Made by a program: the position numbers and the translations under genes. A stretch of DNA of 64,000 nt from Pseudobdellovibrionaceae bacterium (lineage in GTDB: Bacteria > Bdellovibrionota > Bdellovibrionia > Bdellovibrionales > Bdellovibrionaceae), in the NCBI GenBank assembly GCA_019637955.1, contig JAHBUS010000001.1, forward strand, positions 682,001-746,000, in the 5' to 3' direction. Within the stretch, counting starts at the first letter, position 1; each line of letters begins with the position of its first letter. Shown piece after piece: positions 53,473 through 54,909 of this stretch. The notes beneath the pieces were generated by a model. The model was not told where the DNA came from. It worked only from the letters and a program-made list of their open reading frames with translations, and ran no database searches.

Positions 53473-53922
53473 ATGACGGCACACGGACCTGAAGTCACAG
53501 ATCGAGAACTCACCGATATATTGTCCCGTGGCAAACGCATTTGCGTGATGGGCCTGAGCCCCGTGCCCGCAAGGCCCAGCTACGGCGTGACCCGCTACAT
53601 GATTTCGCATGGTTACGAGATCTATGGCGTGCGCCCGGCCTCGCCGCCTGAAATCTTGGGCCGCCCGGCCTTTGAGTCTTTGGCGCAAGTCGAGGCCGAC
53701 ATCGACATTTTCGACATCTTCCGCAACGCCGACGCGGTTCCAGAAGTGGTTGAAGAGATCGGTATGTGGATGCAGAAACACCCACGCCCCAACGGACCCA
53801 AACGCGTGCTGTGGCTGCAAGAAGGCGTGGGCCATGCCATCGCAGAAAAGCGGGCCCGCGAATTGGGCCTCGAGGTCGTTTCGGATCTTTGCATTTTAAA
53901 AGAACACGCGCGCCTGATCTAG
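53473..53922 (+). CDS. CoA-binding domain protein (YccU-like)
   Basis: The ATG at 53473 follows CGGAG. The 149-residue Rossmann-fold protein has ICVMGLSPVPARPSYGVTRYM at the nucleotide-binding start, VRPASPPEILGRPAFESL, and DIFDIFRNADAVPEVVEE, all typical of the CoA-binding YccU/YneT family related to succinyl-CoA synthetase. The catalytic partner is absent, as usual; the role is unclear. It is divergent from recQ and convergent with the histone-fold gene. Confidence 0.9.
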   Translation: MTAHGPEVTDRELTDILSRGKRICVMGLSPVPARPSYGVTRYMISHGYEIYGVRPASPPEILGRPAFESLAQVEADIDIFDIFRNADAVPEVVEEIGMWMQKHPRPNGPKRVLWLQEGVGHAIAEKRARELGLEVVSDLCILKEHARLI

Positions 53923-53933
53923 ATTTTTTGGTC

Positions 53934-54419
53934 TTATTTTAGGTGCTTCAAAAAACCGAGGTCGCGGTCCATCACGGTCTTGCGGCCATCGGCGCGGGCG
54001 TTGTCGATTGCGCGGTTGCAGATCACGCGCAAATGTTCGGACAGAACATCCATCACCGAGGCCGATGTGTTCATGTCCCCGCGAGCTTGAATGTAATCTT
54101 TCATGCGCGACGCGATCACGAGCACCTCTTGGGGCCCGGTGCTGGTCGAAACTTTGACCGCGCCGCTCGAGACGGCCGCCGTGGTTTCGGGACGAACGAT
54201 GATGCGATTTTTTGCGGGAGCGGTCATTTCCACCGCGGCGGCATCGCGGTGGCGCGCGCCCGGCAGATGCGTTTCAAAACAGGGGATCGAACAAAACACG
54301 TAGCCCGTGCGCTGACCATTGCAGGTCGAAACACTGCACACGTAATACGTCTGACCGAAGCCGATGGTTTTTTTGCAAACACTGCATTTTTTCCAGCCAT
54401 CGGCTGCCATTTGTTCCAT
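53934..54419 (-). CDS. zinc-finger and histone-fold fusion protein
   Basis: I choose the ATG at 54419, seven bases after AAGGAG; a GTG at 54458 would overlap the upstream gene. The 161-residue product has an N-terminal domain with six cysteines (12, 15, 28, 33, 43, 47) spaced like a zinc-binding module, a Thr/Ser/Ala linker (about 60-95), and a C-terminal histone fold (about 98-157). The fold shows helix VIASRMKDYIQARG, the long helix MDVLSEHLRVICNRAIDNAR, and the histone end RKTVMDRDL, in which R146, T148 and D153 match the R-T-D pattern of archaeal HMf histones. It likely binds DNA or protein in chromosome organisation. Bdellovibrio is known to use histones. Confidence 0.85.
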   Translation of the reverse strand: MEQMAADGWKKCSVCKKTIGFGQTYYVCSVSTCNGQRTGYVFCSIPCFETHLPGARHRDAAAVEMTAPAKNRIIVRPETTAAVSSGAVKVSTSTGPQEVLVIASRMKDYIQARGDMNTSASVMDVLSEHLRVICNRAIDNARADGRKTVMDRDLGFLKHLK

Positions 54420-54429
54420 GCCCTGCTCC

Positions 54430-54909
54430 TTAAGCCACCGAAAGAATGCGGTACTCACGCATCTGTTCGTTGATTTCGATATCGGCCGTATCGCCGACTT
54501 TAAGTCCCAGTAAGGCCTCGCCCAGCGACGAGTGCGGCGTGATGACCTGAACCATTTGGCCTTCGAAATTGAGATTGACGCCGCCGCCTTTGGGCATGAT
54601 CAAGACCAAACTCTTTTTGCCTTTGGATTCGACCTGCACCAGCGCGGTCGCCGAAATCACGTCTGTTTTAGAAAAAGTCTTGAATTCCGCCGTTTTGAAC
54701 ATCGAGAGAACCTCGTCGATCTCACCGGCACGTTTGGACTGCGCGCCCGCCAGGTAGGAGGATTCAAGCGCGAAGGTGTCGTACTCGTTCTCGGGCTTGC
54801 TCTCTTCGTGCGTGGCGGCCTCGTAAGTGGCTCGGGCGGCGCGAATGAGGGCCTCGAGCTCTTGCTCCAAGCTTGCGATAAGGGCCGTGACCAAGGCTTT
54901 TTTGTCCAC
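54430..54909 (-). CDS. GreA/GreB-family transcription factor
   Basis: GTG start at 54909 behind GGAG. The 159-residue protein has a helical N-terminal coiled coil including the acidic stretch ESKPENEYDTFALESSYLAGAQSKRAGE, as in the Gre hairpin, and a C-terminal FKBP-like GreA_B domain (FEGQMVQVITPHSSLGEALLGLKVGDTADI). Gre factors rescue backtracked RNA polymerase, but diverged members bind polymerase for other purposes. Ten bases separate it from the histone-fold gene, so the two are co-expressed. Confidence 0.86.
   Translation of the reverse strand: MDKKALVTALIASLEQELEALIRAARATYEAATHEESKPENEYDTFALESSYLAGAQSKRAGEIDEVLSMFKTAEFKTFSKTDVISATALVQVESKGKKSLVLIMPKGGGVNLNFEGQMVQVITPHSSLGEALLGLKVGDTADIEINEQMREYRILSVA

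What the first reader, a model, noticed from the sequence alone, without database searches (positions are those of the whole stretch)
53934..54909. Histone fold fused to a six-cysteine zinc-type domain, co-encoded with a GreA-like factor
The C-terminal 60 residues match the histone fold, with the R-T-D end motif of HMf-type histones, and the N-terminus has six cysteines spaced for zinc. The gene sits ten bases after a GreA/GreB-family gene. Bacterial histones are rare and Bdellovibrio histones are single short domains, so a fusion transcribed with an RNA-polymerase-binding factor hints at a link between chromatin and transcription.
Basis: partly seen in the sequence, partly recalled or inferred. 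Interest (0 to 1): 0.85.

Follow-up and report, generated by a model that had tools for sequence, protein, structure and literature searches.

The report
ZZ-type zinc-finger bacterial histone
The gene is real and encodes a zinc-binding-type module joined to a DNA-binding histone domain, but this combination was already described in 2023-2024 (as Bd3044 and 'ZZ histones'), and its placement beside a transcription-factor-like gene was found in no other genome, so that link is probably chance.

Summary
Window 53934-54419 (minus) encodes 161 aa: an N-terminal module with six Cys and two His, a flexible linker, and a C-terminal histone fold 48% identical to the genome's own HBb-type histone (solved HBb: E 5e-14; Foldseek TM-score 0.89 to HBb). 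It starts ten bases after a divergent GreA/Gfh1-like gene (54430-54909).

The interpretation mostly fails on novelty and linkage. The architecture is the published 'ZZ histone' class (Schwab 2024), already seen in Bdellovibrio as Bd3044. Six cysteines plus two histidines match the published C4 + C2H2 scheme, and the module's predicted fold independently finds eukaryotic ZZ domains first. The GreA-like neighbour is absent from all other ZZ loci examined. Both genes are common in the class but lie apart, and their presence is not associated (P = 0.29).

Two things are not mentioned in the papers I read. The ZZ module also occurs with no histone fold (22 of 40 loci in a deliberately biased sample). 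ZZ histones are patchy even within the genus-level group that probably holds Bdellovibrio (7 of 24 genomes). Most likely the protein is a low-abundance DNA-bound adaptor: the histone dimer holds DNA and the ZZ module binds an unknown partner.

The parts
53934..54419 (-). ZZ histone gene (161 aa, P0001), orthologue of B. bacteriovorus Bd3044
   Evidence: ORF and ribosome-binding site; family alignment; HBb match
54213..54395 (-). ZZ-type zinc module, residues 9-69: C12-x2-C15-x12-C28-x4-C33-x9-C43-x3-C47-x3-H51-x5-H57
   Evidence: C12, C15, C28, C33, C47, H51, H57 invariant in 77 sequences, C43 in over 90%; Foldseek top hits are ZZ domains
54129..54212 (-). low-confidence, poorly conserved linker, residues 70-97
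   Evidence: pLDDT 50-62 over residues 71-100; mean pairwise identity 22% for residues 67-97
53937..54128 (-). HBb-type histone fold, residues 98-161, with R146-K147-T148 and R152-D153
54430..54909 (-). GreA/Gfh1-like gene (159 aa, GTG start, P0002), fourth Gre-family paralogue in the genome; ten bases upstream of the ZZ histone; not a conserved partner
   Evidence: PF01272; Gfh1 best solved match; four paralogues; neighbour not conserved
53476..53922 (+). convergent CoA-binding-domain gene (PF13380) on the downstream side

Best explanation
It is a ZZ histone, an orthologue of Bd3044. Shown by sequence and predicted structure: an HBb-type histone fold that keeps HBb's DNA-contact residues, joined by a flexible linker to a treble-clef ZZ-type module with a full C4 + C2H2 ligand set. 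Inferred: the histone part dimerises and binds or bends DNA without sequence specificity, as HBb does, while the zinc module docks a partner protein (eukaryotic ZZ domains often read free N-termini or tails), so the protein is a low-abundance DNA-tethered adaptor rather than bulk chromatin. Co-transcription with the GreA-like gene is a local arrangement without evidence of shared function.
For: HBb match E 5.4e-14, TM-score 0.89. Eight of ten HBb DNA-contact residues (list in PMC11317129) are kept or conservatively replaced: S104, R105, K107, N117, S119, K147, T148, R152; T8 to A103 and K16 to Q111 are changed. The ZZ part is at least as conserved as the histone part (mean pairwise identity 62% against 58%, linker 22%), so both are selected. 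The ZZ model's best PDB hits are p62, BIG and HERC2 ZZ domains. The published ZZ-histone definition and low expression and abundance of the B. bacteriovorus ZZ histone come from PMC11390915. ZZ exists without the histone, so the module has its own function.
Against: No DNA binding, metal content or partner has been measured for any ZZ histone in the papers read. Foldseek E-values for the ZZ part are weak (best 0.024). Schwab et al. report that the eukaryotic ZZ peptide-pocket residues are not conserved and think binding to other histones' tails unlikely. The net charge of the histone part is only about +2, though that of the genome's HBb is +1.
Confidence: 0.6

Rival explanations
1. One reading: ZZ histone and GreA-like factor form one functional module linking chromatin to the elongating RNA polymerase.
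For: Ten-base gap and a ribosome-binding site overlapping the upstream stop codon, so co-transcription is likely in this genome.
Against: No GreA-like gene in 29 other ZZ loci of the class, in 80 named-genome loci with up to 6 kb flanks, or by profile search over all ZZ loci held (only the window's own locus hits). Presence is not associated across 144 genomes (42/59 against 52/85, P = 0.29). In two other genera the GreA-like gene sits next to recQ instead.
Confidence: 0.06
2. The ZZ histone works through heterodimers with HBb, bringing the zinc module to HBb-covered DNA as a histone variant.
For: Most ZZ genomes in the class also encode a separate HBb, and the folds are 48% identical in this genome.
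Against: Schwab et al. report that only 50% of proteomes with a ZZ histone have a second histone, so it cannot be general; not tested here (no multimer prediction available).
Confidence: 0.2
3. The protein is chiefly a protein-binding zinc adaptor; the histone domain serves as a dimerisation device and DNA binding is vestigial.
For: The ZZ module persists without any histone fold in 22 of 40 sampled loci. Low net charge of the histone part.
Against: DNA-contact residues are strongly conserved across 77 fused proteins.
Confidence: 0.12

Closest known systems
ZZ histones (alpha3 histone family; Schwab et al. 2024, PMC11390915), type example D0LYE7 of Haliangium ochraceum; Bd3044 of B. bacteriovorus
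   Same: N-terminal ZZ-type module with C4 and C2H2 sites and a C-terminal bacterial-dimer-like histone fold; 65-70% identical to the protein of the genome whose length fits HD100 (L013)
   Different: Only the GreA-like upstream gene is peculiar. The second C4 pair is C-x3-C in the sequences here, whereas the paper names C51 and C53; I could not check D0LYE7 itself.
HBb (Bd0055; PDB 8cmp, 8fvx, 9f0e, 9ezz)
   Same: Histone fold, RKT and R-D clamp, most DNA contacts
   Different: HBb is a single short domain without a zinc module
Eukaryotic ZZ domains (p62, BIG, PRT1, HERC2, p300)
   Same: Closest solved folds to the N-terminal module, cross-brace Cys/His pattern
   Different: Weak similarity (E 0.02 or worse); peptide pocket reported not conserved
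Gfh1/GreA-family factors
   Same: The upstream gene belongs to this superfamily; Thermus Gfh1 is the best solved match
   Different: Altered coiled-coil tip (EESKPENEYDT in place of the canonical GDISENAEY seen in this genome's own GreA); function not established

Membership tests
ZZ histone (alpha3 family) | N-terminal ZZ-type domain with two zinc sites, C4 and C2H2 | tested here: met
   Eight ligand positions conserved; model resembles ZZ domains. Zinc itself not testable here.
ZZ histone (alpha3 family) | C-terminal bacterial-dimer-like histone fold | tested here: met
   E 5.4e-14 to HBb, TM-score 0.89
ZZ histone (alpha3 family) | RKTxxxxD-type loop/clamp motif | tested here: met
   R146 K147 T148 R152 D153
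ZZ histone (alpha3 family) | alpha2 shortened and alpha3 truncated to 3-4 residues | tested here: inconclusive
   Model gives alpha2 of 24 residues but alpha3 of about 10; C-terminal length varies among relatives
ZZ histone (alpha3 family) | single-gene transcription unit, as reported for alpha3 histones | tested here: not met
   Here probably second gene of a two-gene unit; a reported tendency, not part of the structural definition of the class
ZZ histone (alpha3 family) | binds zinc and DNA | not testable with these tools
   Needs purified protein
GreA/GreB superfamily (upstream gene) | C-terminal GreA_GreB domain over Pfam cut-off | tested here: met
   31.3 bits against cut-off 26.9
GreA transcript-cleavage factor (upstream gene) | scores above the NCBIfam GreA cut-off; canonical acidic coiled-coil tip | tested here: not met
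   31.8 bits against cut-off 139; tip motif diverged

The most novel reading that the evidence does not exclude
The ZZ module is an old, independent adaptor of Bdellovibrionota and related bacteria that gains or loses a histone fold, so ZZ histones are a DNA-tethered version of a widespread bacterial peptide-reading protein, perhaps reading free protein N-termini as eukaryotic ZZ domains do.
Probability: 0.15. Interest if true: 0.65.

Novelty: new member of a known kind. Interest (0 to 1): 0.3.

Why it matters
It extends a small, experimentally untouched class of bacterial histones to another genome, and removes a tempting but unsupported chromatin-transcription link. The finding that the zinc module often stands alone gives a direct way in: identify what the stand-alone module binds, then ask what the histone adds.

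Tried and rejected
Conserved operon partner: neighbour clustering over 148 ZZ loci found no recurrent neighbour; the only large clusters were the ZZ gene itself and overlapping shadow frames. GreA link: rejected. Family models: PF00808 misses the gene and no Pfam zinc family reaches its cut-off for the window protein. Viral relatives: two IMG/VR contigs carry only the histone part. A promoter scan found nothing. Number of solo/fused switches: the minimum is 5 on a 65-column tree, but starred branches force only 1, so repeated switching is suggested, not shown. Myxococcota could not be sampled by whole-genome search.

Full report
What is there. On the minus strand, 54419 down to 53934, the window holds a 161-codon gene with an ATG preceded by AAGGAG. 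A GTG start further upstream (54458) would overlap the upstream gene and is not supported by the aligned relatives, nearly all of which begin close to the same place. The upstream gene, 54909-54430, ends ten bases before it and encodes a 159-aa GreA/GreB-superfamily protein. Downstream lies a convergent CoA-binding-domain gene. Co-transcription of the two minus-strand genes is therefore likely, though the promoter scan found no site.

Histone part. phmmer against all PDB chains gives HBb of Bdellovibrio bacteriovorus at E 5.4e-14 over residues 98-155. A profile of 77 relatives gives 7.2e-19 and also picks up archaeal histones, more weakly. AlphaFold2 on that alignment gives helices 103-114, 120-143 and 151-160 at high confidence, and Foldseek puts HBb first with TM-score 0.89. 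The genome's own HBb orthologue lies elsewhere (contig 10, 48% identical). HBb's ten main DNA-contact residues are listed in PMC11317129. By alignment eight are kept or conservatively replaced here; T8 and K16 correspond to A103 and Q111. DNA binding is therefore likely but inferred.

Zinc part. The ligand pattern is C-x2-C-x12-C-x4-C-x9-C-x3-C-x3-H-x5-H. All positions but C43 are invariant in 77 sequences from Bdellovibrionota, Myxococcota and others; C43 is Asp in L022 and L093. The region is as conserved as the histone fold or more so (62% against 58% mean pairwise identity; linker 22%). No Pfam zinc family passes its cut-off for the window protein. The module's own AlphaFold2 model (mean pLDDT 83.5) finds eukaryotic ZZ domains first (p62, BIG, HERC2, PRT1), at weak E-values from 0.024. 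This was obtained independently of the published assignment and agrees with it.

Known or not. Schwab et al. 2024 (PMC11390915) define ZZ histones as exactly this architecture and note one in B. bacteriovorus HD100 with low expression. Hocher et al. 2023 (PMC10627809) list Bd3044 as the longer second histone, present in 37% of Bdellovibrionota. The search with the ZZ module gives 59 of 144 genomes of the class (my count from the table), which fits. L013 comes from a single-contig genome of 3,782,950 bases, which I recall as the length of HD100, so it is probably Bd3044 itself. The window gene is a further member of this class.

The GreA-like neighbour. It is not conserved. None of 29 other class loci, none of 80 named-genome loci with flanks up to 6 kb, and none of the other ZZ loci held under a family profile has one. 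The GreA-like gene occurs in 94 of 144 class genomes but apart from the ZZ gene. Presence is not associated (42 of 59 genomes with ZZ against 52 of 85 without; tallied by hand; Fisher P = 0.29). In G002 and G030 it lies beside recQ, which is also near it in the window, so the GreA-like/recQ neighbourhood is probably older and the ZZ gene came in beside it. No other genome of this genus was among those searched, so the age of the pairing cannot be judged. Schwab et al. also state that alpha3 histones are generally single-gene units. The genome has three other Gre-family genes, and this one is a divergent paralogue whose best solved match is Gfh1.

An unexpected point. A search with the ZZ module alone hits 174 of 369 Bdellovibrionota genomes, nearly always once each. 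Of 40 loci then fetched, chosen to over-represent short reading frames and distant families, 18 carry the histone fold and 22 do not, within the 2-3.7 kb fetched around each. Among the solo forms some are barely longer than the module (about 75 codons), and a second group has a short tail ending in ILRR-like residues. In the tree the solo forms need at least five changes, but the alignment is too short to force more than one. The papers I read do not mention solo forms. They argue that the module has a function of its own.

Distribution and essentiality. In the genus-level group that probably holds Bdellovibrio (g4), 7 of 24 genomes have the ZZ module, and many of the others are complete single-contig assemblies. 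A review (PMC11318664) says that bd3044 is essential. The passages of the primary paper that I read describe deletion attempts only for bd0055. The patchy distribution argues against general essentiality.

Mechanism. Most likely the histone fold dimerises and grips DNA in the HBb manner, while the zinc module, on a flexible linker, binds an unidentified partner. This makes a low-abundance adaptor rather than a packaging protein. The fold, ligand set and residue conservation are shown (fold by sequence match and prediction); dimerisation, DNA binding, zinc binding and partner binding are inferred.

Noticed in passing
L180-L199, L208, L214 (for example L180, ORF of 78 codons on the minus strand): Stand-alone ZZ modules without any histone fold in several Bdellovibrionota families; one group carries a short tail ending in ILRR-like residues.
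   Followed up: partly
L022:1495-2019(-); L093:1712-2317(+): Asp replaces the otherwise near-invariant fifth cysteine (C43) of the zinc module.
   Followed up: no
G000 whole genome (window 53934-54419; L002): Pfam PF00808 finds no histone in a genome that encodes two, so family-model annotation under-reports bacterial histones.
   Followed up: yes
L121, L123: The GreA-like gene lies directly beside recQ in two other genera, as it nearly does in the window.
   Followed up: partly
genus-level group g4: ZZ module present in only 7 of 24 genomes of the group that probably holds Bdellovibrio, at odds with a review's statement that bd3044 is essential.
   Followed up: partly
L034, L035: Two IMG/VR contigs encode an HBb-like histone domain (43-45% identical), consistent with the published phage histones.
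   Followed up: no
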